Origin: an archaeon
GTDB lineage: Archaea; Asgardarchaeota; Hermodarchaeia; Hermodarchaeales; Hermodarchaeaceae
Direction of reading: 5' to 3'
Length of the DNA: 19,309 nt
Assembly (NCBI GenBank): GCA_016550415.1
Contig: JABXGU010000413.1
Span: forward strand, 1-19,309
In this document: piece after piece, positions 3,961 through 19,309 of the stretch
How positions within the stretch are numbered: position 1 is the first letter of the stretch
Layout: each line of letters opens with the position of its first letter
Position numbers and translations under genes: made by a program
The notes under the pieces: generated by a model
What the model saw: only the letters and a program-made list of their open reading frames with translations
What the model was told of the DNA's origin: nothing
Database searches by the model: none

Positions 3961-4351
3961 GTGGTCCAGAGAGGAAGGACGGCTGCCGGATGCATAGCGT
4001 CTGAGGAAGGTCTGTCCTCCCATAGGCAACGGTACGGTGAAAACCGTAGGTCGAGAGCCCTGCTCTGGGAACAGCAACGACACGACCATCGCCAAAATGA
4101 CAATGATGCAGTAGAGGACTGCCCTTTTGAGCTGGTCCGAGCGGCGTGCTGGTAACGGGACGTTGGTTAACCTGTTGAGGATGACGATGGAACCGTTGAA
4201 ACGACCCATCACCGTGGGAGCAAGCCCAAATAGGTCACTAATGACAAGCCTAACGAGGTGACGGGTAGGGTGCTTAGCTGGATGCCGTCAAGCCTGCCAG
4301 GGTAACCCGGCAGGATTAACAGAAGATGGCCTACTCTCCTAACTGGACCAC
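3961..4351 (+). ncRNA. rnpB: RNase P RNA (archaeal type A)
   Basis: The catalytic RNA that matures tRNA 5' ends is recognisable from all its conserved blocks, in order. Helix P1 is formed by GTGGTCCAG (3961-3969) and CTGGACCAC (4343-4351). CR-I reads GAGGAAGGTCTGTCCTCCCA followed by TAGGCAACGGTA (from about 4003). The middle contains GGGAACAGCAACGA and CTGGTAACGGG. CR-IV reads GTGGGAGCAAGCCCAAATAG (4214-4233). Then comes GGGTAGGGTGCTTAGC, and CR-V reads ACAGAAGATGGCCTA near 4319-4333. The length of 391 bases is normal for a type A archaeal RNA. A TATA box lies 26 bases before P1 and T-runs follow the 3' end. The ends given are those of the P1 pairing and may be a base or two off. Confidence 0.95.
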
Positions 4352-4409: not shown

Positions 4410-5441
4410 TCATTGGGTTTTGGGTTCCATTGGAGTGGCGGTTGCCCTAATTGTTGGTCTTGCCCTTTTTCCGTGTTGGAGGCGATTCGGGTGTGGGTTG
4501 CACACACCTGTCGGTTTGTCCGGTCGTTGTGGCCGGATTGTACCGGGTGTAGCATTTTGGTGTTTTTTGGTGCGAATTAGGTAGAGGGTGCGTTGGGTTG
4601 TGAGGATTAGGTGGGTGGCGAGATTAGTGTGAGTGTATCGGCTGTCGGCTGGTATGCTGTGTAGGAGGGAGGACTGTTGTATAGCTTTGTAGAGGTGGTG
4701 GGGTCCAGCGTTTGCAGCTTGGATTAGTTCTTTGGCTAAGCGCTCTGTCTCGTCCACAGGAATTGATGTTTTGTGTGGGTAGATGCTAGGAGTGTGGCGG
4801 TTTCGTCGTGCAGTCCATTGATCAGCTTTTTGGAGTAGGGTGAGGTCGGGATTTTGGGTGGCTGCTTGGGTGTCGTGGTGGTGTTGGCAGAGCAATGTTA
4901 TTCGATTGTCCAGTGGTTCAATGGATACGCCTAGTTTGCTTTTGTGTTGTGGGTTGTCGATGAGGTCGTGGAGTAGTGCAGCGGTTATGAGTTTTGCTTC
5001 TTGTGGGGTTAGTGAGGGTAGTCCTTTGAGGATGCGGAAGGGTTTGGATGGTTGAGTGGGAAGGGGAGCCTCCTTTGTGGTGCCGACATGGATAGGCTGG
5101 AGGCGGCCGTAGCCCCATTGTCTGAGCTGGCTTGGTGGACGCTCTGCTAAATCACGGAAGAGTTTGTTGTATCGGTGTTCCAGTTTGGAAGGAATGAGTT
5201 GGTTGCGGGGAAGTCGTTCGAAGATGTGGAGGTGTCCGGTCCATGCTCGGATCCAGCCAGTTAGTCTGGTGCCTGTGGTTTTGGGGATGCGTTGGAGGAC
5301 AGGAGAGTCGCTGAGGGCACGGCATGGATCATTTTGCCAGTTGTGTCTGCTGATGATGTGCCATCTTCCTTGGCGGCGGAAGATGCGGCGGGACCAGACA
5401 AGCGGGGTGAGGGTGCGAGCAACCAATAACAAATAAGTCAT
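4410..5441 (-). CDS. HD-domain nuclease/phosphohydrolase of the CRISPR-like operon
   Basis: This 343-residue protein has an HD domain in the middle. LITAALLHDL places H158/D159, CQHHHD places H187-D190 and LLQKADQWTARRNR places D207. The last stretch resembles the ADxxSSxER-type end of Cas10 HD domains, so a metal-dependent nuclease of the Cas10/Cas3'' kind is plausible. Residues 1-120 are a separate module with RLTGWIRAWTGHLHIF and QWGYGRLQPI; this could be a degenerate RAMP/Cas5-like fold, but I cannot confirm it. The last 50 residues are basic and proline/threonine-rich, with no recognisable fold. The ATG at 5441 overlaps the TGA of the Cas7-like gene (ATGA), so translation is probably coupled. 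No GGDD cyclase motif is present, so this is not a full Cas10. The gene runs convergently towards rnpB. Confidence 0.72.
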   Translation of the reverse strand: MTYLLLVARTLTPLVWSRRIFRRQGRWHIISRHNWQNDPCRALSDSPVLQRIPKTTGTRLTGWIRAWTGHLHIFERLPRNQLIPSKLEHRYNKLFRDLAERPPSQLRQWGYGRLQPIHVGTTKEAPLPTQPSKPFRILKGLPSLTPQEAKLITAALLHDLIDNPQHKSKLGVSIEPLDNRITLLCQHHHDTQAATQNPDLTLLQKADQWTARRNRHTPSIYPHKTSIPVDETERLAKELIQAANAGPHHLYKAIQQSSLLHSIPADSRYTHTNLATHLILTTQRTLYLIRTKKHQNATPGTIRPQRPDKPTGVCNPHPNRLQHGKRARPTIRATATPMEPKTQ

Positions 5442-6721
5442 TGCTTTGTCTCCTCCTTGCCATTGTTATTGATCCATTGATGGAATGTTGCGAGAGCGTC
5501 CTCCAACATTTGTGGATTCGGATCTTTTTGCGGGTGAGTGACTACGCGGAACCCTGGCCCTTGGGATTGGAGGTGGTATTGGAGGGTTTCGTGGTAGTAT
5601 TGGAGATGTTGGAGGTGGAGGCGTCCGCTGCCCCATGCTTTAGCTTTGCCAGTGGCTTGCCCATTGATAGCTAGCAGACTGGCTACAACAAGCCCAAATT
5701 GGATGGGTGTTGGTTTGTGGCGGAATTCTATTCGCAATGTGAATGTGCCACTCAGATATTCCTCGACGAAAGCAAGGCTTGGATTTCCTATGTCATCGTA
5801 GATTACATGACGATTGTGAGAGCTGACATACATTCGGTTTATTGTAACACCTTGTATGTCCTCTAGCTCTTCATTCTGTTGCTGGCACATACTTTCTATT
5901 TTGCTGGTTTCTGTGCTACTATTCCCATTGTTTGCTTTGGGATGTTGACTGTTGCTTTTGTTGGTGTTTTGACTTGTATTATTTGGTGTGTCGGTGTGGA
6001 TTATGGGTGGCACATAGACTTCGATTAGACCGGGTGTGCGCAAGCTACCAAAGACCTGGTGGTATAGGCAGGGGTTGTCTTCTGCACAGGTGCCACTTGG
6101 ATGATGGTGCACACTGGCAGGTGCTTCTTTTACAGGTCTGCAGTGGTGGATGCCTGCAGCACAAAGGAGGTGGCAGGCGGCTTGGGCGATAGCTCCTCGC
6201 AGGGACCCTAGGAAAAAAAGGCGTACTGGCTCTGCACGGGATTCCCAGGCCTCTGGTGGTTGGGTGTTCAGCCATTCGGTGATTACTGTGTCTAGTTGTG
6301 GGTAGGCTAGTAGCTTTGCTATCTTTTCTGCTTTCCTTCCGGTATTCTTTAAAATGGTTGCTCCTTGCTGTTGGCATCTTTCGATTAATTGGTGTAATTT
6401 TGACACAGTTAATAGACTCAAACCTTCCTTTAGTGCGCCATCTGCTAGTAACTGGAGGGCAGAAGGAGCTTCCACGGAAATGGGATTGCAGCGGACTAGC
6501 ATACTTCGTGGTGGTCGTCCTTGAGCTCCTCCCATCGATGCGTTGTGAACTTTGAGCATGGGTGTGTAGAAGTGAGCTTCCAACACCCAGTGTCCATTCC
6601 CTTTGTTTTGGCGGTATGCAGTTTTCGGAACCTTTTCCAGACTGTCATTCCCTAATATGGGTGATCCCTTTTGGTAAGTCTTTGACTCTGCCAATCCATT
6701 CGGTGGAGTTTGCAGGTTCAT
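5438..6721 (-). CDS. Cas7-like RAMP-family protein
   Basis: This 427-residue protein has the landmarks of Cas7/Csm3/Csf2-type RAMP proteins, which coat guide RNA along the backbone of type III, IV and I-D effectors. RLFFLGSLRGAIAQA (167-181) matches the 'SSLRGA' element. NPCLYHQVFGSLRTPGLIEV (216-235) matches the 'CpicrlFG' element. Near the C-terminus FTLRIEF (327-333) is followed by the glycine-rich RNA-contacting loop ATGKAKAWGSGRL (356-368). Between them, residues about 243-275 are an N/S/T-rich low-complexity insert. A longer open frame runs upstream to 7477, but its upstream part is out of frame with a genuine nuclease gene. I chose ATG 6721 because it overlaps that gene's TGA as ATGA and precedes the first plausible strand. 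The TGA overlaps the start of the HD gene. Confidence 0.78.
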   Translation of the reverse strand: MNLQTPPNGLAESKTYQKGSPILGNDSLEKVPKTAYRQNKGNGHWVLEAHFYTPMLKVHNASMGGAQGRPPRSMLVRCNPISVEAPSALQLLADGALKEGLSLLTVSKLHQLIERCQQQGATILKNTGRKAEKIAKLLAYPQLDTVITEWLNTQPPEAWESRAEPVRLFFLGSLRGAIAQAACHLLCAAGIHHCRPVKEAPASVHHHPSGTCAEDNPCLYHQVFGSLRTPGLIEVYVPPIIHTDTPNNTSQNTNKSNSQHPKANNGNSSTETSKIESMCQQQNEELEDIQGVTINRMYVSSHNRHVIYDDIGNPSLAFVEEYLSGTFTLRIEFRHKPTPIQFGLVVASLLAINGQATGKAKAWGSGRLHLQHLQYYHETLQYHLQSQGPGFRVVTHPQKDPNPQMLEDALATFHQWINNNGKEETKQ

Positions 6722-7293
6722 TTGGAGTTTTGTTTCATGTGACTCCCTAGCCACCGCTCCAATTCCTTTTGAACTGTGAGTGGTTGTGCCTCCAATTGGT
6801 TGCCTGAAAGTAAATCGATGAGGAGTTGTCCCAGCTGAGGAATGCTGGTTGTCACGTAATCGGTGTATTTGAGGTTGGCAATACGCTTTGGTGTTAGTGC
6901 TCGGTTTTTGTATTCTTGGCAGTGGGGGGCTTCGAGTAAGGCGATGGTTGTGAAAGAACCTGTTTCTTTTGCAAGACGAAATTTGTAGTCTAGATAGATT
7001 GTGCGACGCCAGAGAGTGGTCCAGGCTTTTGAGCAGTTTTGATGGGTGCTCTGAGTACATTCGGCTAATACGCGGTTTTCTACTTGGAAGTCGAAGACAA
7101 GTGCTTCGCCAGAGATGCGCAGGAGCCATTGTTCGCGAAAGGACAAACCAACTTCTTCGAGCATCTGGGCTACCAATGCTTCTTGGGCTGTGCGTCCCTC
7201 TCGGTGGGTTAAACATGATATTCGACCGTGCCCTGGATCGAGGGGAAGGGGTGATGTTGGTGTTCGATTGCGACGTTGTGAGGAAGGACCCAT
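6718..7293 (-). CDS. PD-(D/E)XK-like nuclease, first gene of the RAMP operon
   Basis: This 191-residue protein opens with a proline/arginine-rich tail (1-30). An alpha-beta core follows: a helix REGRTAQEALVAQMLEEVG (31-49), then LVFDFQV (65-71) and RVLAECTQST (74-83). D68 and E78 occupy the positions of the PD-(D/E)XK acidic pair. The usual lysine two residues after the glutamate is a threonine (ECT), so the active site is atypical; a lysine in the following helix (K104 of YLDYKFRLAKE) could substitute. The core end TIALLEAP is typical of the fold. An in-frame TGA lies three codons before ATG 7293, so this is the first possible ATG. It couples to the Cas7-like gene through an ATGA overlap, which suggests an effector nuclease of the same complex. 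The exact family is unrecognised. Confidence 0.66.
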   Translation of the reverse strand: MGPSSQRRNRTPTSPLPLDPGHGRISCLTHREGRTAQEALVAQMLEEVGLSFREQWLLRISGEALVFDFQVENRVLAECTQSTHQNCSKAWTTLWRRTIYLDYKFRLAKETGSFTTIALLEAPHCQEYKNRALTPKRIANLKYTDYVTTSIPQLGQLLIDLLSGNQLEAQPLTVQKELERWLGSHMKQNSK

Positions 7294-7607
7294 TATTCTT
7301 CATCTCAAGGAGGGAAGGGGGGAATGATTCATAGGCTCGTTTATTGCTCCAAAGTTCCTGCCATTCTCCGAGTTCACCTAGAAAATGATGACAATAGACA
7401 TCATAAACTCCACAAAGACTCATATCACTGGCTATTATTCGGCTATCCCATGACACAAACAACACCAGAATAAGCATTACAAGGGTTGTATTTAAACATT
7501 GGAAGCCTTTGTTTCTTCCATCGGTATTATTAATGATTTAAGTCGCCTTAGAATAGGATTCTGAGCCCTTCTTTTTATTTTTGCCCTATCTGAATACGGA
7601 TTAGGCT
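7294..7607. promoter_or_regulatory. Divergent promoter region of the Cas1/RAMP locus
   Basis: This 314-base interval separates the two operons and should hold both promoters. A minus-strand TATA box, TTTAAATA (7496-7489), points to a transcription start near 7466. That would give the nuclease operon an unusually long leader of about 170 bases. On the plus strand CTTTTTATTTTT (7571-7582) could be a weak TATA element starting transcription around 7601-7605, just before GTG 7608. An open minus-strand frame covers most of the interval (from 7477) but leads out of frame with the nuclease gene, so I do not annotate a gene. I see no direct repeats spaced like a CRISPR array and no long inverted repeat. 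Confidence 0.5.
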
Positions 7608-10600
7608 GTGTTGGTTGGGTCAGAGTTACTAACCGTAATGCTTAAAAATAGACCAAATTCCGCCGGGCTTCGGAGACCTAAGATGAGTGCGGAAGTCGCG
7701 AATATAGCAACATCCCGCCTTCATGCTCTTGGATTATTGGAAAAGATTGCTCCAAGAGCAAAGCTTAGTCCTCGGGAAATGGAAGCAGATTGTCTGGTGA
7801 CAGTTGCTGCTGAATTCGAGGTTCAGGTTACTGTCGTGGCGAGTTGGGTGGAGTGGCAGGTAGCTGCTGGACGACGGTGTGCCATCCTACTTGAACGCGG
7901 TCAAAATGCAACAGCAGTAGCAGACGCACTGAAGGCTCATTTACCCGATGTGCGAATTTTAGTCTGGGTAGGACAGGAGGTAACACTGTGGCCTGCACCA
8001 CTTCAGTATGACGTAGTGGTGTGCAGTTATCGACGTTTTTGGAACCGCTTCGCTCGGAATGTCCGTTGCGGCTTCCATGCTGTTGTTGCTTGGGATCTCG
8101 ATGTGATGTTGCTGTCTTCTATCTGTGTTCTTGTGGAAGCCTTGGTGGCGCGATGGCGTTTGGGTAATCGTCCTTTTCGGTTGATGGGAGTGACTCGGGG
8201 GTGTGCACAGAAATTAGTGACCTGGCTGTATGGACCTGATAAGGATTCATCCGAAGATGATTCATACTATGTTGTGGTAGATTCCCCAAAATGTCTGAGT
8301 GTTACTTTCAAGCCTTTGACTGTTAATGGTGATTTAGAGGTACTAGGTATAAACCTAGTAGCTCGACCAAGCAGAGTAGCAGCATGGATTTCACCAGACT
8401 TCGCGATGGAGCTAGCGCAATGTTGGAAGAATGCTGGGGTGGAGATTTCCATCTATGGCTATGGGCGTTTTGCAAAGCAATCCTCTGTGGACGTGGCGAT
8501 TGTTAACGGGGGGATGTTGACACAAATAGAGCTTCGTGAAGTGGCAGCGTTCCTCAAAGAAGGTGGTGAACTTGTCATTCTCTATCGCGATGAAGAGGAT
8601 TCGTTTTGGGAGGGAGGAGAGAAGAGAGCTTCTCAACTTTTAGAATTACGACAGTTGGTGCGGCAGACTCTGGGCGTTGGTCCTCTCCAAGAATGCCCTA
8701 TAGATTGGGAAATGTTCTTGCTGCATTTATTCCGACATACTCTTCCCTGTTTCAAGGGACTAGAACTTTGTCAGTGTAGTTTTGCTGCTATGTTTGCAGG
8801 CGTAAAGCCGCCATCCATTGAAGAGTTTGAGATATTATTCATGCGGCTACAAGATGAAGGGTTGGTGCAACGTCATGGCACTTTAAAAAGCCGGTTTGGT
8901 GGGACTGCTCATTGTACAGAAAATGGTGAAAATCTCGCTAAGACAATCTATACGGCATCTGTACGCCGCGCTGTCCTCAATCGATATGCGCACCACTCAC
9001 GTGATTCTGACGAACCTGATTGGTTATGGATAATCCAAGCTGCAGCTGAATTGACAGGTGAAGAACAGCTGGAAGCAGAATTTTGTGACCTATTGAAAAC
9101 TTCAGTTTTGGCTACAGTAGATTCTTCAAAACCTCCACGTTGGTTGCGTCCAGGACTCTTTGCTATCTCAGCTTTGGATGCAGCCACAGCTAGATTCATC
9201 GAGCAACATGCCCGTAAGATAGGTATTCTTCCCATACCGACAACTGATATCTTGCCATATTCAAGTCCAAGACGACACCGTCCACATCCAGTTGCTCTAC
9301 GCAAAGTTATTCGGTTTGTATTTGGTGCTTTGGCACAAGGTATATTGCGTCCCAGTCAACGTAAGATAGCTGCCCGTACAGATCTACATTACGCTGAAGT
9401 GGCAGCAACCTTGGATCTTCCATCTATCACTGTCTACCAAATTTTCCGTGATTACTTTGAGTACAACCCTCTCACACCCAAACAAATAACATTGGTAAAG
9501 GGTTTGGGTGTAAGCTCTTGGAATCAACTTTTATGGATTCGACGTTCTTGTGTTTTAACCCATTATCATGTAGGTTTCCATCGTCCCAGACTCCTTCTAG
9601 TTCGAATTGATCCTGAGGCTAGAGGAGAACCAGTAGTTCCAGAACGTTATCGTAGGACCTGTGGGGAGTGTGTGTTTTTTGACGCCGAAGCCCAAGTGTG
9701 CGCACTCTGGTACCAAGTAGCTAGTGTGCGGCAGGATTTAGTTGAAGAGCAGCGAGCAGGTCGTCGGCAAACAAGTCGCCACCTCAATGGCTGCCGTTAC
9801 TTCACAGCTAAAACAAGCTATCACATTTCTGAAAAAAAGTTGAAAGCAGCAACCATCATCTCTCCAAGAGAAGGAGTGTATGAGGTTAGACAATGCGATC
9901 GACCTGGGTGTTCAGGTTATCTGAATCGTATCCCTCGCGTTGGTACTGTGGGACAATGTAATCGCTGTGGAACAACTTATCGAAAGACTCCAAGAGGTCG
10001 TTTGTATGTCCAAATTGGTGTTCTGGATTTGCTTCAGCATGAAGTGCGTGCCATTGCTGGTACACTTCCCTCCAATCTTTTGCCAAAGATGGAGGCTCCC
10101 TCCATTGATACGGCTTCGCTTTACTTGACATCAGACGATACGATTCAGGAGGTGTCCCGTGAGCAAATCGTTATCTCGTATCACCAAGGTCGCTTAATAG
10201 AGACCTATCCATTGGATGAGGTGGGTACACTAAGTCTTCCTGCTGGTAAATTGGATAAAGCTACTGAGGTACTTCTCATTCAACAAGGTATTCGAGTTAT
10301 TCAACGCAGTGACCCTTCTGTTCCAAAACATCCTATACCTGCAATTACTAAAGCTCTAAAACAAGGAGTTGGAAACCCAACTCTATTTCGTCGGCATTGT
10401 GTAGCACAATACCTTAGCCTCCTCCATGCCACTGCAAGTCTATATCCATATTTCGAACGCGATGTCATTAATCGATTGCTGTGGCGCCAGCTAGACCGAC
10501 TTTATCTTTTCAGTCACGCACAGATATCTTCAGATGACAAGGAACGGATTTACCTTCGTGCATGTGAGGGTCAAATGGCGTACATGTTTCATGCTACCCT

Positions 10601-11306
10601 CCGGAGTGCTCTGGCAACATTTGGTGCAACAGATACCAGTATCGGTCGTGTTCATGGTCGCCGTGTTAGGTTTCGTGGAAGTCGTCTTGGTCTCGCGCGT
10701 GGTTGGACCCACTTCGATGCTGCCTTAAACCTAGCTAGTCGTTTGCTTCGCAGTCATCTCCGAGCTATAAATGCTGGTCTTGGTCTTGGATGGCAAACAC
10801 TACCCCTCTTTCTCCACACGCCTAGAGACCATCCCGGACTAGGTGTCCATCTGGACTTAGAAGAGGTTCCACGATTAGCACTCACACTCTCAATTTTCCA
10901 AGCCTTCAACTCTGGTCAAATTGCACAAAAAGACTTCAAATGCCAGTTCACACCGCTTCAAATCCCATTCTATTCTCCCAACTCTATTGGATACCAGAAA
11001 TTACATCAATTAGTCAATCAACTATTAGAAATACGAGTCTTGTACTGTGACAAACTTCTATCTCTTGACTCTGCGCATCAGCACCATGTTAGTCATCTTT
11101 TGGATATTCTTCAATCAGGCTCCTACATACAATACAAACCCCTGCTTTGGGTTCCACATGACAACATCGAGCAGATATGGAGGGATTATGCTCCTCTGAG
11201 AACTTTCAATGTTTTCTTATTGTTCCAACTTGGTGAACCCTTCCGATCGGAGGTTTCTCACCTGCTTAAGCAAAATAACGTAAAAAATTGTGAGAGGAAT
11301 GAATGA
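7608..11306 (+). CDS. Fusion of a degenerate Hel308-like helicase, Cys clusters and a Cas1 integrase domain
   Basis: This protein has 1232 residues. Residues ~60-210 follow the RecA1 domain of Hel308/Ski2 helicases (GRRCAILLERGQNA, YDVVVCSYRRF, HAVVAWDLD in place of DExH, FRLMGVTRG in place of the SAT motif, LVTWLYG), but Walker A is absent. Residues ~250-335 fit a decayed second RecA domain. Residues ~366-460 fit the Hel308 winged helix (EILFMRLQDEGLVQR, then ENGENLAKTIY). C685/C688/C698/C729 and C763/C768/C784/C787 are likely metal sites. From about 836 a Cas1 domain begins: the beta-rich N-lobe LYLTSDD...QIVISYHQGRLI, then E987 (ACEGQMAYMF), H1070 (LFLHTPRD) and D1083 (HLDLEE). The 13-residue H-to-D spacing equals that of E. 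coli Cas1. It is presumably a DNA integrase on a dead-helicase scaffold. Starts: GTG 7608 (possibly leaderless), ATG 7638, or ATG 7683 with GGAG upstream. Confidence 0.82.
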   Translation: MLVGSELLTVMLKNRPNSAGLRRPKMSAEVANIATSRLHALGLLEKIAPRAKLSPREMEADCLVTVAAEFEVQVTVVASWVEWQVAAGRRCAILLERGQNATAVADALKAHLPDVRILVWVGQEVTLWPAPLQYDVVVCSYRRFWNRFARNVRCGFHAVVAWDLDVMLLSSICVLVEALVARWRLGNRPFRLMGVTRGCAQKLVTWLYGPDKDSSEDDSYYVVVDSPKCLSVTFKPLTVNGDLEVLGINLVARPSRVAAWISPDFAMELAQCWKNAGVEISIYGYGRFAKQSSVDVAIVNGGMLTQIELREVAAFLKEGGELVILYRDEEDSFWEGGEKRASQLLELRQLVRQTLGVGPLQECPIDWEMFLLHLFRHTLPCFKGLELCQCSFAAMFAGVKPPSIEEFEILFMRLQDEGLVQRHGTLKSRFGGTAHCTENGENLAKTIYTASVRRAVLNRYAHHSRDSDEPDWLWIIQAAAELTGEEQLEAEFCDLLKTSVLATVDSSKPPRWLRPGLFAISALDAATARFIEQHARKIGILPIPTTDILPYSSPRRHRPHPVALRKVIRFVFGALAQGILRPSQRKIAARTDLHYAEVAATLDLPSITVYQIFRDYFEYNPLTPKQITLVKGLGVSSWNQLLWIRRSCVLTHYHVGFHRPRLLLVRIDPEARGEPVVPERYRRTCGECVFFDAEAQVCALWYQVASVRQDLVEEQRAGRRQTSRHLNGCRYFTAKTSYHISEKKLKAATIISPREGVYEVRQCDRPGCSGYLNRIPRVGTVGQCNRCGTTYRKTPRGRLYVQIGVLDLLQHEVRAIAGTLPSNLLPKMEAPSIDTASLYLTSDDTIQEVSREQIVISYHQGRLIETYPLDEVGTLSLPAGKLDKATEVLLIQQGIRVIQRSDPSVPKHPIPAITKALKQGVGNPTLFRRHCVAQYLSLLHATASLYPYFERDVINRLLWRQLDRLYLFSHAQISSDDKERIYLRACEGQMAYMFHATLRSALATFGATDTSIGRVHGRRVRFRGSRLGLARGWTHFDAALNLASRLLRSHLRAINAGLGLGWQTLPLFLHTPRDHPGLGVHLDLEEVPRLALTLSIFQAFNSGQIAQKDFKCQFTPLQIPFYSPNSIGYQKLHQLVNQLLEIRVLYCDKLLSLDSAHQHHVSHLLDILQSGSYIQYKPLLWVPHDNIEQIWRDYAPLRTFNVFLLFQLGEPFRSEVSHLLKQNNVKNCERNE

Positions 11307-13656
11307 TTCGCTGGAGATTCCACTGGTTGCACACATCCGATATCCACGTAGTCAGCCTCGGCGCAGTAGTAGACATTGGACTACTCTTCTTCCACATCTC
11401 GGAAGCCAAGTACAATGCAAACATCGGGGATGGCGACCAAGCAGATCACAAGCCCAGTTCTTTCAAGCAGCTCATGCAGGACATCATATCCTCAATACAG
11501 TGGGTACTGGCAATGGGAAATCTTGGTCTGTTGCCGCCTACATAGCTGACCAGACTGTAGCAAAGCATACTACTCCTAATCAAGCTTCCTTTCGCCATGC
11601 CATTTACTGGCTGCCAACAAGAGGAGTAGCCATAGATCAAGAGCAAAAAATGCGTAATCTTCTACGCAATCTCGATCTGAAAACTCCGGTTGCAGTAGTA
11701 GGCTATACGAGTGATTTAACACAAGAGGAGAGCTATCACATCAGGTCCCAATGTAAGGATTATGATGTCCTTTTCTGCACACCAGACTTGTGGCGAGCTA
11801 GCCTAATTGGAGCGAGCCAGAGTGGCACAGAGGTTGGGAAAAAATGGACTGAATTTCTTCTAACCCCTTCAATCCTTGTTCTCGATGAAATCGACTACTA
11901 TGATAGCTACACCATAGGACACCTACACTACCTTCTACGAATAATAACTGATACCTGCATTCATCATAATCTTTCTCCACCACAAATTCTAGCCTGCACA
12001 GCCACTATTGGAAATCCAAAACAGTTCACCGCCACATTCTTCCCAGACACACGAGGGCATACCATCGTCAGTGGTCCACCTCGTCGAGGTCCAATAGATG
12101 TGTGGGTTTATCGGTTGCAATTGGTCAGCCTCGATGATAAGGTTCATGGGCTCCATGAAGTTCTTCTGGACAATACGCTGGGTCAAAATCCAGGGTTAAT
12201 TCAACAAGGACTGAAGATTCTTGTTTATCTCCAAAATAAAGCAGAGTTAGAGCGCCTATTACAAGCCAAGAACTATTGGTTGAAAGGCTTCGATGTTATG
12301 CATGCAAGTAAAGAAACGCAAGCTAATCGACAGACCCATCAAGCATTCAGCTATGGACAATTACAGGGATTATTTGCTACTAGCTACTTGGATCGTGGAT
12401 TAGATATTGACAGTCTTACACATGTATTGATTATTGGTTTTCCCCAATCAATTAACGATTGCCTCCAGCGCATTCACCGTGTGGCCCGCAACCCCACACA
12501 ACAAGGGACTGTCTATTTGTTACTTGACGAGCGCCATTCTCTCGATCGCTATTATCTCGAAAAACCCCAAGCCCTTCATCGTGACCTTGAAGACTTTCGC
12601 CCAGAAACTTTACATGTTAATCCAGAAAATCCACAAGTCGTGGCTCGAACTGTACAGCTAGCTCTACTCCTCGGCTACTCCACACATGACAAACTTACCC
12701 GCCTATTTCCACTTGACAAATTCCCACATCTAACGAATATACTTGAGAACACCTTACTTCAACTCCGCATTGATGGCTATTGCTACACATCACCTGAACC
12801 ACAAAACTATGAAAACCACACTTCCCTCAAAGACTTCGCAATACGAAATAGCATACGGAGTTCAAGCAATGTTCTAGAAATCTTTACCAGAAACGGAAAC
12901 CAAAAAGAGTATCAAGTTGGACAACTTCCAGAAGAACAGGCTATCGTTCTTGCTTGCCCAACTAACAACTTCTTCCTAAATAAAAAACCTTGGCTCGTTA
13001 AGGACATTATACGTTCACAAATAATCGTTGTACCAGGATCTCCACTATATCAATCCCGCAATAAAGTAGCTTACCGTCTTGCGTACAAGCCCACTGCAAC
13101 TCGCCATCTATCCAAAGTAACTATACAAGCCGTTACTGCCCGCATCATTCATTATCCCGAAAAATTACGAGAATATGATGTTAACAACCCACACCGGTCA
13201 ATAGCATCCCGTGAACCTACACAAGATACGAGAATAATCGTTGATAGAATGGTTACTGGATTACTAATTAGTTTACAACGGGGAAAATTATCTGAAACGG
13301 TGTCTTTACAGCAGTCGTTCAGTCTAATAGGTACAATGCTTCAGTCTGCAGCTTGGCATCGCTACGGTATCAAATCTAACGAACTCGCCCTCCTTCCTGT
13401 GGAGGGCACCGCCACCCCCCAAATCCTCCTCTATGATACAGGTGGTGATACCGGACACATTCTCACATTGTGGCATAATTTAGATCAACTAGCTCAGGAT
13501 GCAATCACACTTCTAACTACATGTGAATGCGGTGGTGACGGTTGTCCACATTGCTGGCGCCGCTTCTACCCCGCTTCATTCATACATCCTCCCAAGAAAG
13601 TACGCGACGAAATTATAGGAGTTCTCAAAGAGGTGAGCCAACATCAATGGCGTTAA
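11299..13656 (+). CDS. SF2 DNA helicase, MrfA/YprA-like, with C-terminal zinc module
   Basis: This protein has 785 residues from ATG 11299, or 788 from GTG 11290 (numbering here uses the longer form). All SF2 motifs are intact: a Q-motif-like RPSRSQAQFF (49-58), Walker A GTGNGKS (72-78), Ib-like CTPDLW, Walker B LVLDEID (196-202), motif III TATIGNP (237-243), motif V TSYLDRGLDID (364-374) and motif VI QRIHRVAR (393-400). ATIGNP followed by SGPPRRGPI and the arrangement of V/VI recall MrfA/YprA helicases. The C-terminus ends with DTGGDTG (716-722) and C745/C747/C752/C755 in CECGGDGCPHC, the MrfA zinc-binding (DUF1998/MZB) pattern. It should be an ATP-driven DNA translocase with a 3'-5' bias, as known for that family. 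It overlaps the Cas1 fusion gene by 8-17 bases and the phosphoesterase gene by 10. It has no HD domain of its own, unlike fused Cas3. Confidence 0.88.
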   Translation: MNDSLEIPLVAHIRYPRSQPRRSSRHWTTLLPHLGSQVQCKHRGWRPSRSQAQFFQAAHAGHHILNTVGTGNGKSWSVAAYIADQTVAKHTTPNQASFRHAIYWLPTRGVAIDQEQKMRNLLRNLDLKTPVAVVGYTSDLTQEESYHIRSQCKDYDVLFCTPDLWRASLIGASQSGTEVGKKWTEFLLTPSILVLDEIDYYDSYTIGHLHYLLRIITDTCIHHNLSPPQILACTATIGNPKQFTATFFPDTRGHTIVSGPPRRGPIDVWVYRLQLVSLDDKVHGLHEVLLDNTLGQNPGLIQQGLKILVYLQNKAELERLLQAKNYWLKGFDVMHASKETQANRQTHQAFSYGQLQGLFATSYLDRGLDIDSLTHVLIIGFPQSINDCLQRIHRVARNPTQQGTVYLLLDERHSLDRYYLEKPQALHRDLEDFRPETLHVNPENPQVVARTVQLALLLGYSTHDKLTRLFPLDKFPHLTNILENTLLQLRIDGYCYTSPEPQNYENHTSLKDFAIRNSIRSSSNVLEIFTRNGNQKEYQVGQLPEEQAIVLACPTNNFFLNKKPWLVKDIIRSQIIVVPGSPLYQSRNKVAYRLAYKPTATRHLSKVTIQAVTARIIHYPEKLREYDVNNPHRSIASREPTQDTRIIVDRMVTGLLISLQRGKLSETVSLQQSFSLIGTMLQSAAWHRYGIKSNELALLPVEGTATPQILLYDTGGDTGHILTLWHNLDQLAQDAITLLTTCECGGDGCPHCWRRFYPASFIHPPKKVRDEIIGVLKEVSQHQWR
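13630..13636 (+). promoter_or_regulatory. Ribosome binding site fixing the phosphoesterase start
   Basis: GAGGTGA lies inside the end of the helicase gene, ten bases before ATG 13647. It matches the archaeal Shine-Dalgarno consensus and selects this internal ATG over the much longer open frame that begins at 13542. Confidence 0.7.
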
Positions 13657-14306
13657 TTGATGTCATTTTTGCAGATATCCATATCGGGCTATCTGATAGT
13701 CGATGGGACGCTGTCCTTGACACACTCAAAAAACTCACAACTAATGAAAATACTACAATCGGTGCAATAATTTTTGCTGGTGATACAGTAGACATCACAC
13801 GGGCAAAACCTCAACAAGTTACTACTGATCTTAATAAATTCTGCAAAGAATTGAAGAAATTAAACCTACTTCATAGAAGTGTCTTTCTTCACGGAAACCA
13901 CGATCCAACAATAAACCAGTTACTCACTGTTCCAGACTGCATCCTTCGCCCTACTGTGCTGCTCCGTTTCCCTGACACCAACATTTTCATCGTGCATGGG
14001 CATGGCATAGGTCTAGAAGCAGCTATTTCCTGTCATGGCTATACCTCTACTGCCTTCGCTGCTGCCAAACAACGCCTAATTCGTTATCCCCCGCTTTGGC
14101 TCCAAGAACCCATGAGCCAAAATGACTGGTTAGTTGCTTGTCATTATGCCCTTCCTCATATAGACTTCGAAAACCGAACTGCTGGGCTTAGTCCATGGAC
14201 TGGTAGCCTTGATGATAACTGGCATGGTCACTATCTCATAATCCGTTCACATCCAACCCGCCCAATACTCGTTCTTTGTAAAAGGGATAAACCTATTCCA
14301 GCCTAG
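13647..14306 (+). CDS. Calcineurin-like metallophosphoesterase
   Basis: This 219-residue protein has the dinuclear-metal motifs of the superfamily in order: ADIHIG (D10, H12), FAGDTVD (D46), HGNHDP (N84, H85, D86), a conserved ACHYALPH (H166) and VHGHG (H117, H119). The HGHG form and small size recall the archaeal COG1407-type phosphoesterases, which are commonly encoded next to Lhr-family helicases. Here the partner is an MrfA-like helicase, so a matching helicase-nuclease/phosphatase pairing is plausible (inference). Likely substrates are DNA ends or nucleotides, but a phosphodiesterase acting on a small molecule cannot be excluded. The ATG at 13647 follows GAGGTGA, and the gene overlaps the helicase stop by 10 bases. 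It is the last gene of the operon; a T5 run at 14325-14329 may help termination. Confidence 0.85.
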   Translation: MALIDVIFADIHIGLSDSRWDAVLDTLKKLTTNENTTIGAIIFAGDTVDITRAKPQQVTTDLNKFCKELKKLNLLHRSVFLHGNHDPTINQLLTVPDCILRPTVLLRFPDTNIFIVHGHGIGLEAAISCHGYTSTAFAAAKQRLIRYPPLWLQEPMSQNDWLVACHYALPHIDFENRTAGLSPWTGSLDDNWHGHYLIIRSHPTRPILVLCKRDKPIPA

Positions 14307-14372: not shown

Positions 14373-15671
14373 TCACGCCTCTGGGTGTCCATGTCTATAG
14401 GCAAGAAGTACTAGAGAACCCAAAATAATTGCGAATACAAGAATGAAGATTACAGTACTTATAGCAGCAATACTTCGAGGTGTAAAAGAGTCGAGTATTT
14501 CAAGAGTACCTGTCAATGAGAGAATATTCACGGCACCATAAGTGCCTCCGATGTCATATTCTTCGCCTCCAAAAAGTCCATAGTGAGGGCACCGTGCGAG
14601 GAAGTCAGGTAGATAAATACGATATTGATAATCAAGAAGCTGACGGTCTAATGTGGTATCAAGAGTTAAAATTAGTCCTTCTTCAGATTCATCGAGACCA
14701 CCCAAAACATCTAATGCTCTAATTGCATAGAATGTTTCCCAGTCATGAGGTGGATCATTAGCAGCTCCAGAATGAGGATCAGAATTTGTAATTATGTGAA
14801 AATCTCCTAAAAACGTTTGACATCCCCAAACGAAATCAATTGTATCATTGCTATGCATCTCGATATAACCTGCTATCTGATCTAAATCCTCCAAAATCAT
14901 CAACGCACAATAAGTATAGGGAAGACCAGTTCCGTATGCCCCAGAAAAAAATCCTCCCGAATTGTCAGTAGCATTCGGAAAGGGGCGAAAACCGCCATCA
15001 GGCCCTTTTGATTGATAAACCCAAGATAATGTTTTGGAAGTATTAATTATGTCTAGGCTATCCATACTCTTTAAAATTGAGATCCCAAGGTGTGTGCTTA
15101 TCATGTTATCCTTATCAAATGGGTAGGGTTCACCTCGCCACATATCAAAGCTGCAGGAGCCGTCTGGCTCGTAAAATGCTCCACTTGTCTCGTTGTAATG
15201 GTTAAGAATGAGGAGTTCTAAAGATGTGGAGTTGCAACGGTCTATTGAATTTGTTATTATGAGGGCGTTTACACAGAGCCAGTTTGTATAGAGTTCCTGG
15301 GATCCATGATTAGAGAAGCTTCCTGTTGTTTGATTTTGGTTGGCTAAAATGTATTCAATTGCTGCTCCTGTATTGATTAGATTCAGAGAACCAAGTTGAT
15401 CGCATATTGTTATAACCTCTGCTGTACAGGGTAGACAACTTTCATTTCCAGGAAAGAGTCTTGAGAAAGGAGGGTAGGCTCCATCTGATTTTTGCCCTCT
15501 TACTAGAGCCCGTATAAGGGCCTGGTTCCTGGTCTCCAGGAACGCTTCAGTGGGTATGCAAAGTACATAGGCAGAAAACACAGAAAAGATAATTAGGGCC
15601 ACTAGACAAGCACTAGCAGCCCCAATCTTGTATTGGCGTTTATCAATCAGTCCAATGCACCTGAAATCCAA
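14373..15671 (-). CDS. Membrane-anchored alpha/alpha-toroid protein (prenyltransferase/squalene cyclase repeat-like)
   Basis: This 432-residue protein has two membrane helices, about 18-40 near the N-terminus and 401-424 near the C-terminus, so residues 41-400 should lie outside the cell with a short basic tail inside. The outer domain contains repeats of a helix-G-x-[FY] type: KSDGAYPPF, TTGSFSNHG, ETSGAFYEPD, GPDGGFRPF and HYGLFGGEE, each followed by a segment with Y/N-A-L or A-L-x-x-L. This is the pattern of alpha/alpha-barrel repeats in squalene cyclases and protein prenyltransferases. The DxDD catalytic motif of cyclases and the zinc ligands of prenyltransferases are not evident, so I do not assign an enzyme activity; similar extracellular toroid proteins are frequent in Asgard genomes. 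Its ATG lies 29 bases inside the end of the upstream surface-protein gene, so the two form an operon. Confidence 0.75.
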   Translation of the reverse strand: MDFRCIGLIDKRQYKIGAASACLVALIIFSVFSAYVLCIPTEAFLETRNQALIRALVRGQKSDGAYPPFSRLFPGNESCLPCTAEVITICDQLGSLNLINTGAAIEYILANQNQTTGSFSNHGSQELYTNWLCVNALIITNSIDRCNSTSLELLILNHYNETSGAFYEPDGSCSFDMWRGEPYPFDKDNMISTHLGISILKSMDSLDIINTSKTLSWVYQSKGPDGGFRPFPNATDNSGGFFSGAYGTGLPYTYCALMILEDLDQIAGYIEMHSNDTIDFVWGCQTFLGDFHIITNSDPHSGAANDPPHDWETFYAIRALDVLGGLDESEEGLILTLDTTLDRQLLDYQYRIYLPDFLARCPHYGLFGGEEYDIGGTYGAVNILSLTGTLEILDSFTPRSIAAISTVIFILVFAIILGSLVLLAYRHGHPEA

Positions 15672-18994: not shown

Positions 18995-19309
18995 GTGCCA
19001 CGAGTTTTTGTTCTTCGGATTCCTGGATGCGACCCAAGAAAATGTAGCGCATTAAAAATGGCACGTCATGGTCTAGTGAAGTTGCTTAGAAGTCCTCGTC
19101 AGATTCGTGGACAGCCATTGGTATTGAATCCGTTTAGTGAGAAAGCATTTTCCCCTGCTGATAGAGTTCTTGCAGAGCAAGTGGGTATTCTTGTGCTTGA
19201 TTGTTCTTGGAATGAGGCAGATGAATCATTTCAGAGACGATTACCTGGAAAGGCACGTTGTCTACCCTATCTTGTTGCAGCAAATCCTGTGAATTATGGA
19301 AAAGTTGGC
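18995..19309 (+). CDS. tsr3: Tsr3 rRNA aminocarboxypropyltransferase, N-terminal part
   Basis: The first 105 codons of this gene are present; it runs off the right edge. Tsr3 (DUF367 plus its N-terminal metal-binding-like domain) transfers the aminocarboxypropyl group of S-adenosylmethionine to a hypermodified uridine of small-subunit rRNA, in archaea and eukaryotes. The diagnostic stretches are DPRKCSALKMARHGLVKL (13-30), LNPFSEKAFSPAD (44-56), VLDCSW (67-72) and RLPYLVAANPVNYG-type residues at the end (here LPGKARCLPYL, then AANPVNYG). Start candidates after an in-frame TGA at 18980-18982 are TTG 18989 and GTG 18995. GGTGA at 18978-18982 suits either. I chose GTG because it gives the usual short N-terminus, MPRVFVLR. 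Confidence 0.93.
   Translation, partial: MPRVFVLRIPGCDPRKCSALKMARHGLVKLLRSPRQIRGQPLVLNPFSEKAFSPADRVLAEQVGILVLDCSWNEADESFQRRLPGKARCLPYLVAANPVNYGKVG

What the first reader, a model, noticed from the sequence alone, without database searches (positions are those of the whole stretch)
4410..14306. Candidate new CRISPR-derived system: Cas1 fusion + RAMP + HD + helicase, with no array
Seen: two divergent operons with overlapping genes combine a Cas1 integrase domain, a Cas7/RAMP protein, an HD domain, a PD-(D/E)XK-like protein, an intact SF2 helicase and a metallophosphoesterase. Known: Cas1 normally comes with Cas2 and an array. Casposons carry Cas1 with PolB. HRAMP systems carry RAMPs without Cas1. 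This set matches none of them. Inferred: an immune or programmed-integration system in which the RAMP/HD/nuclease operon is the effector and the Cas1/helicase/phosphoesterase operon processes and inserts DNA.
Basis: partly seen in the sequence, partly recalled or inferred. Interest (0 to 1): 0.95.

Follow-up and report, generated by a model that had tools for sequence, protein, structure and literature searches.

The report
Array-less CRISPR offshoot of Asgard archaea
Six neighbouring genes in a likely Asgard archaeon make up a CRISPR-derived gene set without a CRISPR array, of a kind (ARAMP) already reported in Asgard archaea, and in three other lineages with the same effector genes a conserved RNA-like element follows those genes, which may be the guide RNA that the system was thought to lack.

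Summary
All six genes are there, in two divergent runs with overlapping genes. Profile or fold evidence supports Cas1 (catalytic E, H and D invariant in 21 loci), a Cas7/Csm3-like RAMP, a RAMP fused to a Cas10-type HD domain, an SF2 helicase and a metallophosphoesterase; the PD-(D/E)XK call rests on conserved residues only. No array was found. The kind is not new: a 2022 review describes ARAMP, array-less CRISPR derivatives of Asgard archaea, most with a distinct Cas1. The window is a divergent variant, with Cas1 fused to a degenerate SF2-helicase fold. Two results go beyond what I found in print. First, across 227 Asgard genomes the Cas1-helicase-phosphoesterase and RAMP-HD modules are conserved and multi-copy, but usually apart. 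Second, in three other lineages an RNA-like element follows RAMP-HD: in one clade a strongly covarying, dispersed RNA family; in a second, DNA constrained as RNA rather than protein; in a third (weakest), a hairpin that pairs in 4 of 4 loci. A cis-encoded guide or scaffold RNA becomes testable, but a regulatory leader or mobile-element end fits too. The window itself shows no proven copy.

The parts
4410..5441 (-). RAMP-HD fusion: residues 1-124 RAMP fold, residues 144-297 Cas10/Csm1-type HD domain; tail 298-343 low confidence
5438..6589 (-). Cas7/Csm3-like RAMP (start codon uncertain; stretch as aligned)
   Evidence: aligned with 9 relatives; relatives hit Cas7-11 and Csm3
6718..7293 (-). PD-(D/E)XK-like nuclease candidate, 191 aa
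   Evidence: invariant D68, E78, K104, K109 in 8 relatives; 58% identical to the divergent neighbour of the Hermod Cas1 fusion
7683..11306 (+). Cas1 fusion (ORF opens at 7608): degenerate SF2-helicase fold (about 7716-8882), Cys-rich region (9423-10076), Cas1 domain (10281-11111) with E987, H1070, D1083
11290..13656 (+). SF2 helicase with MZB domain; Walker A-like GTGNGK and DEID kept
   Evidence: Pfam DEAD 1.2e-15, Helicase_C, MZB
13542..14306 (+). Calcineurin-like metallophosphoesterase (in-frame ATG at 13647)
   Evidence: Pfam Metallophos 1.5e-9; adjacent to or fused with the helicase in other loci
4499..4554 (-). Palindrome in the HD-gene tail: weak, unproven candidate for the RNA element seen behind HD in other lineages
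   Evidence: hand-picked 63 nt has z -3.35; in a systematic scan the minus-strand windows rank only 112 and 153 of 2568 by z; no R1 or R2 match

Best explanation
The cluster at 4410-14306 is most likely an ARAMP locus, a CRISPR-derived, array-less gene set of Asgard archaea, in which the Cas7-like RAMP and the RAMP-HD fusion likely form an RNA-dependent complex whose Cas10-type HD domain would cut DNA, while the Cas1 fusion, helicase and phosphoesterase likely process and insert DNA. Shown: the domain identities (PD-(D/E)XK by motif only), conserved catalytic residues, and conservation of both modules across Asgard genomes. Inferred: that RAMP and RAMP-HD assemble as Cas7 and Cas5/Cas10 do in type III complexes, and that DNA is the target (the HD residues are kept; no invariant Asp suggests a Cas7 RNase site). 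Proposed, untested: the RNA partner is not a CRISPR transcript but a structured RNA encoded right after the RAMP-HD genes, as in three other lineages, with the unique sequence 3' of the element as possible guide; Cas1 would move or copy such units.
For: Cas1 E-H-D invariant in 21 loci and profile match to Cas1 (Foldseek also lists 4n06 at 8.5e-5); RAMP profile matches Cas7-11, III-D and Csm3; 46 of 51 RAMP relatives carry precomputed Pfam RAMPs; HD fold is Csm1/Cas10-type; RAMP and HD neighbours on one strand in 43 of 49 RAMP places; helicase, phosphoesterase and Cas1 adjacent or fused in many loci; ARAMP described in print. RNA: R1 covariation above all 500 shuffles in all five measures; codon-position test and frame-breaking indels in lineage A; 4 of 4 paired arms in lineage B.
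Against: The window's RAMP and Cas1 domains match no family model on their own at the usual cut-offs. Cas1 lies within 10 kb of RAMP in only 18 of 49 places; one Hermod Cas1-fusion copy stands without RAMP-HD. No R1 or R2 match in the window. R1 was found in 5 of 227 genomes and R2 in 9 of 26, with many solo copies away from RAMP-HD. No expression, binding or activity data.
Confidence: 0.6

Rival explanations
1. It is mainly a mobile genetic element: the Cas1 fusion with helicase and phosphoesterase is a casposase-like transposition module, RAMP-HD is cargo or a separate element, and the structured element is a terminal sequence rather than a guide.
For: Many copies per genome and HD fragments; dispersed solo elements; presence/absence beside the same gene in G062/G057 against G063, and before glmM in G176 against G175, G177 and G178; PMC8730458 says some Asgard Cas1 homologues may belong to novel mobile elements.
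Against: No terminal inverted repeats or target duplications around the window cluster; no PolB among the Pfam hits; flanks at the compared sites differ too much to show a clean empty site; RAMP and HD keep conserved residues.
Confidence: 0.25
2. The element is a cis-regulatory leader or portable 5' untranslated region, not a partner of the RAMP complex.
For: Several solo copies end shortly before a start codon, with GGTGAT resembling a Shine-Dalgarno sequence and TATA-like sequence upstream (by eye); likewise before genes in lineage A.
Against: Placed behind RAMP and HD in all 14 G177/G178 RAMP loci and behind HD in two further lineages whose elements differ in sequence.
Confidence: 0.3
3. 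The RAMP-HD complex takes crRNAs from ordinary CRISPR loci elsewhere in the genome.
For: Type III kinship; 5 of 13 genomes have canonical Cas1-Cas2 pairs elsewhere; PMC12669027 suggests recruitment in trans for subtype III-G (passage).
Against: 8 of 13 genomes, among them G062 with 10 listed HD matches, show no Cas2, though they may be incomplete; arrays were not searched genome-wide.
Confidence: 0.12

Closest known systems
ARAMP (Asgard RAMP; Makarova et al. 2020, paper not held; known here from passages of PMC8730458 and PMC12669027)
   Same: Asgard, array-less, diverged RAMP proteins, distinct Cas1 in most, associated nucleases, type III kinship
   Different: Cas1 fused to a degenerate helicase fold in the window; whether the exact fusions or any RNA element were reported in 2020 could not be checked
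HRAMP (haloarchaeal RAMP)
   Same: array-less RAMP set with nucleases, kin to type III
Type III CRISPR-Cas (Csm/Cmr)
   Same: Csm3-like RAMP; Csm1/Cas10-type HD
   Different: no array, no Cas2, no Cas10 palm found; HD sits on a RAMP protein
Casposons
   Same: Cas1 integrase outside an array, possible mobility
   Different: no PolB, terminal repeats or target duplications found
OMEGA systems (TnpB/IscB with omega RNA)
   Same: by analogy only: structured RNA encoded at the 3' end of the effector gene, dispersed copies, unique sequence on its 3' side
   Different: unrelated proteins; guiding not shown

Membership tests
ARAMP | found in Asgard archaea | tested here: met
ARAMP | diverged Cas7- and Cas5-like RAMP proteins | tested here: met
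   Csm3-like RAMP through relatives; RAMP fold at the N-terminus of the HD protein; which of Cas5 or Cas7 it is remains open
ARAMP | distinct Cas1 (in most) | tested here: met
ARAMP | associated HNH or PD-(D/E)xK nuclease | tested here: inconclusive
   conserved motif residues only, no profile match
ARAMP | no CRISPR array | tested here: met
ARAMP | same families as the loci published in 2020 | not tested
   paper not held
Canonical type III CRISPR-Cas | CRISPR array and Cas10 with palm domain at the locus | tested here: not met
   no array; Pfam and PADLOC scans of the six proteins show no Cas10, and scans of the main neighbouring ORFs show no cas gene
Casposon | PolB plus terminal inverted repeats and target-site duplication | tested here: not met
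HRAMP | RAMP set of Haloarchaea | tested here: not met
   relatives are Asgard
OMEGA-like (guided by a cis-encoded RNA) | RNA bound by the effector and used as guide | not testable with these tools
   only position, conservation and covariation were tested

The most novel reading that the evidence does not exclude
ARAMP is an RNA-guided system without arrays: the Cas7-like RAMP and the RAMP-HD nuclease are programmed by a dedicated structured RNA encoded directly behind them, whose unique 3' flank is the guide, and Cas1 with helicase and phosphoesterase copies or moves these RNA units to new sites, giving dispersed one-unit 'arrays'. It would be a third design besides CRISPR arrays and omega RNA.
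Probability: 0.22. Interest if true: 0.93.

Novelty: new variant of a known kind. Interest (0 to 1): 0.62.

Why it matters
A 2022 review calls the ARAMP mechanism enigmatic because it keeps Cas1 and RAMP proteins without an array (PMC8730458, passage). Showing that its effector is a Csm3-like RAMP plus a RAMP-Cas10HD fusion, and that a conserved RNA-like element follows it in three lineages, turns 'what guides it, if anything?' into a pull-down experiment. If the RNA is a guide, it would show how array-free programming can evolve from type III CRISPR in the archaea closest to eukaryotes.

Tried and rejected
rnpB as integration site: archaeal RNase P RNA ends 65 nt from the HD stop, but no terminal inverted repeat or duplication was found, 39 other loci hold 2 tRNA genes in all, and Rfam finds nothing in 9 of them nor in 3 more. 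'CL3' small protein family: first read as a gene, it is the R1 element. Window RNA: R1 and R2 do not match; the palindrome at 4486-4563 gives the lowest energy of 2568 windows on the plus strand, but ranks 112 and 153 by z on the minus strand. The MAFFT-based consensus fold of lineage B missed its stem; the arms were then picked by eye and checked. Approximate core-motif search over HD tails: exact only in parts of lineage B and R1, elsewhere uninformative. R1 outside its clade: one weak match, L060 at the HD 3' end, E 0.053. Viral contigs: no relative of the Cas1 fusion or of HD. Empty site: not clean. Cas1-fusion model weak (pLDDT 51): only its N-terminal match is used, at high rmsd (9.5 over 329 residues for Hel308); fold families not listed by VIA-align are not excluded. 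Plain Foldseek for the HD model gave nothing under E 0.001. Papers: searches showed no ARAMP RNA in the held library; Makarova 2020 is not held, so prior description cannot be excluded.

Rows dropped before counts: one weak R1 copy of 29 (L048 12747) before alignment A9; 11 of 29 lineage-A tails without the 3' anchor, and L104; HD rows typed for neighbour counts were 47 and 42 (R2), RAMP and HD rows 35 (R1), each a part of the rows that searches listed.

Full report
WHAT IS THERE. Single-sequence searches are weak: Pfam names clearly only the helicase and the phosphoesterase, PADLOC gives Cas1 at E 0.01. No whole genome is held for the window. Neighbours are an N6/N4 DNA methylase, a Ras-family GTPase, an endonuclease III-like protein, a PAP2 protein and a prenyltransferase-toroid protein, and archaeal RNase P RNA at 3967-4345.

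RELATIVES. Besides its own entry, the Cas1 fusion has two full-length relatives in a search of 5.8 billion proteins in which the 7997 best candidates were scored; one, at 44% identity, is named as a Promethearchaeota MAG. Two loci lie in one Hermod MAG. One of these has the same divergent nuclease-like gene at 58% identity, with a TnpB-type gene beside it; the other has no RAMP genes on its 9.6-kb contig. A first search of 227 Asgard genomes found matches in 13. A profile of 21 Cas1 domains finds them in 19 of 227, the RAMP profile in 18 of 227 and the HD profile in 22 of 227, with up to 8, 10 and 10 listed matches per genome; some are short fragments.

ARCHITECTURE ACROSS ASGARD. Cas1, Cys-rich region, helicase and phosphoesterase recur together and fuse in different ways: helicase-Cas1 in one chain (L034-L036, L044, L050, L051), helicase-phosphoesterase in one chain (L030, L031, L032, L042, L046, L060). 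RAMP and HD are neighbours on one strand in 43 of 49 RAMP places (checked against 47 HD rows); a Cas1-family place lies within 3, 10 and 20 kb of 8, 18 and 20 of the 49. The nuclease-like gene occurs in L028-L033, L001 and the window, with a further conserved gene of about 240 aa beside it in L028-L033. Cas2 occurs in 5 of 13 genomes tested (13 chosen from those with matches), each time beside a canonical Cas1 and away from these loci; 8 of 13 have none.

KNOWN KIND. Two reviews describe ARAMP as array-less, CRISPR- or type III-derived loci, in Asgard archaea, mostly with a distinct Cas1, and with nucleases (PMC8730458, passages; PMC12669027, legend passage). The original 2020 paper is not held. 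The window fits, with a Cas1 fusion that may or may not have been described there.

THE RNA. Twenty-eight copies (one weak copy of 29 dropped) fold into a 10-bp hairpin, a closing stem and an inner hairpin. On 55 copies 93.8% of cells pair, all five measures exceed all 500 shuffles, and 9 of 10 pairs of the first hairpin change on both sides (the alignment was fitted to the model, so counts lean to it). No Rfam family matches in the three loci tested. Covariance model R1 matches in 5 of 227 genomes, G175-G179, at 52 listed places, only 14 candidates being scored per genome. All 14 RAMP loci of G177 and G178 have 1-4 copies, 29 of the 55 matches; since 28 of these built the model, the count of neighbours is partly by construction. 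Twenty fetched regions hold 23 of the 30 listed places outside RAMP loci: 3 regions have HD remnants beside the element, 17 have no RAMP, HD or Cas1 remnant, one of these (L081) with a distant helicase hit.

TWO MORE LINEAGES. In lineage A (G042, G056-G063) the HD ORF runs on past its domain, mostly by 40-82 codons, over a conserved block. In 8 such loci (28 pairs) mismatches there are 19/25/27% by codon position, against 30/21/49% in the HD domain, and 7 of 28 pairs have a frame-breaking indel. L062 stops after 16 codons yet keeps the block. A terminal hairpin with changing stems was tested in the 18 of 29 tails that have the 3' anchor: summed stem length 100, reached by 0 of 2000 arm permutations; the effect is modest (13 of 18 stems of 5 bp or more against 51% in swapped pairs), and the anchor with the best own stem was chosen, which favours the observed pairing. 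Model R2, built from 16 tails, matches 40 places in 9 of 26 genomes; 26 lie within 350 nt behind an HD row (training tails included), 14 do not. In lineage B (L029, L030, L031, L033) a hairpin with arms of 6-10 bp, different between loci and picked by eye, encloses a similar loop right after HD in 4 of 4 loci. Single-sequence shuffle tests support L030 but not L029, L031 or L033, so this third case is the weakest.

READING. Position behind the effector genes in three lineages whose elements are hardly alike favours a part of the ARAMP machine: guide, scaffold or element end. Solo copies before host genes, with TATA-like sequence upstream and a possible Shine-Dalgarno sequence at the end (by eye), favour a leader or a mobile element. 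G176 has R1 before glmM while the G175, G177 and G178 orthologues do not; the cassette before a Zn-ribbon gene in G062 and G057 is missing in G063. The flanks differ too much to prove insertion. The window has no R1 or R2 match; a palindrome in its HD tail is a weak candidate.

VERDICT. A real, conserved CRISPR-derived cluster of a known but unexplained kind. The most valuable outcome is the candidate ARAMP RNA, which was found outside the window.

Noticed in passing
window 3967-4345 (+): Archaeal RNase P RNA (RF00373, 173 bits) ends 65 nt from the HD stop codon, convergent with the RAMP-HD run; no terminal repeats found.
   Followed up: partly
G175-G179; loci L034-L036, L039, L044, L048-L056, L068-L087: Structured, covarying RNA element R1, 52 listed places, no Rfam match in the three loci tested.
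   Followed up: partly
G042, G056-G063; for example L057-L064, L088-L105: RNA-like block R2 behind or overlapping the end of the HD gene, 40 places in 9 of 26 genomes.
   Followed up: partly
G082:C7, C6, C11: Cas1-domain matches inside open frames of 2096-2772 aa: giant Cas1 fusions.
   Followed up: no
G062:C9: Four RAMP-HD loci and two Cas1-family places on one 170-kb contig: an island of repeated ARAMP modules.
   Followed up: partly
L001:6321-7586 (-): IS605-type OrfB/TnpB gene (Pfam OrfB_IS605) beside the nuclease-like gene of the Hermod Cas1-fusion locus.
   Followed up: no
window 15428-15461 and 19235-19268: 34-nt inverted repeat, 82% complementary, 3.8 kb apart, near the ends of the stretch with the 1005-aa ORF.
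   Followed up: no
L028-L033: A conserved gene of about 240 aa beside the nuclease-like gene, PIN-like by eye; absent from the window.
   Followed up: no
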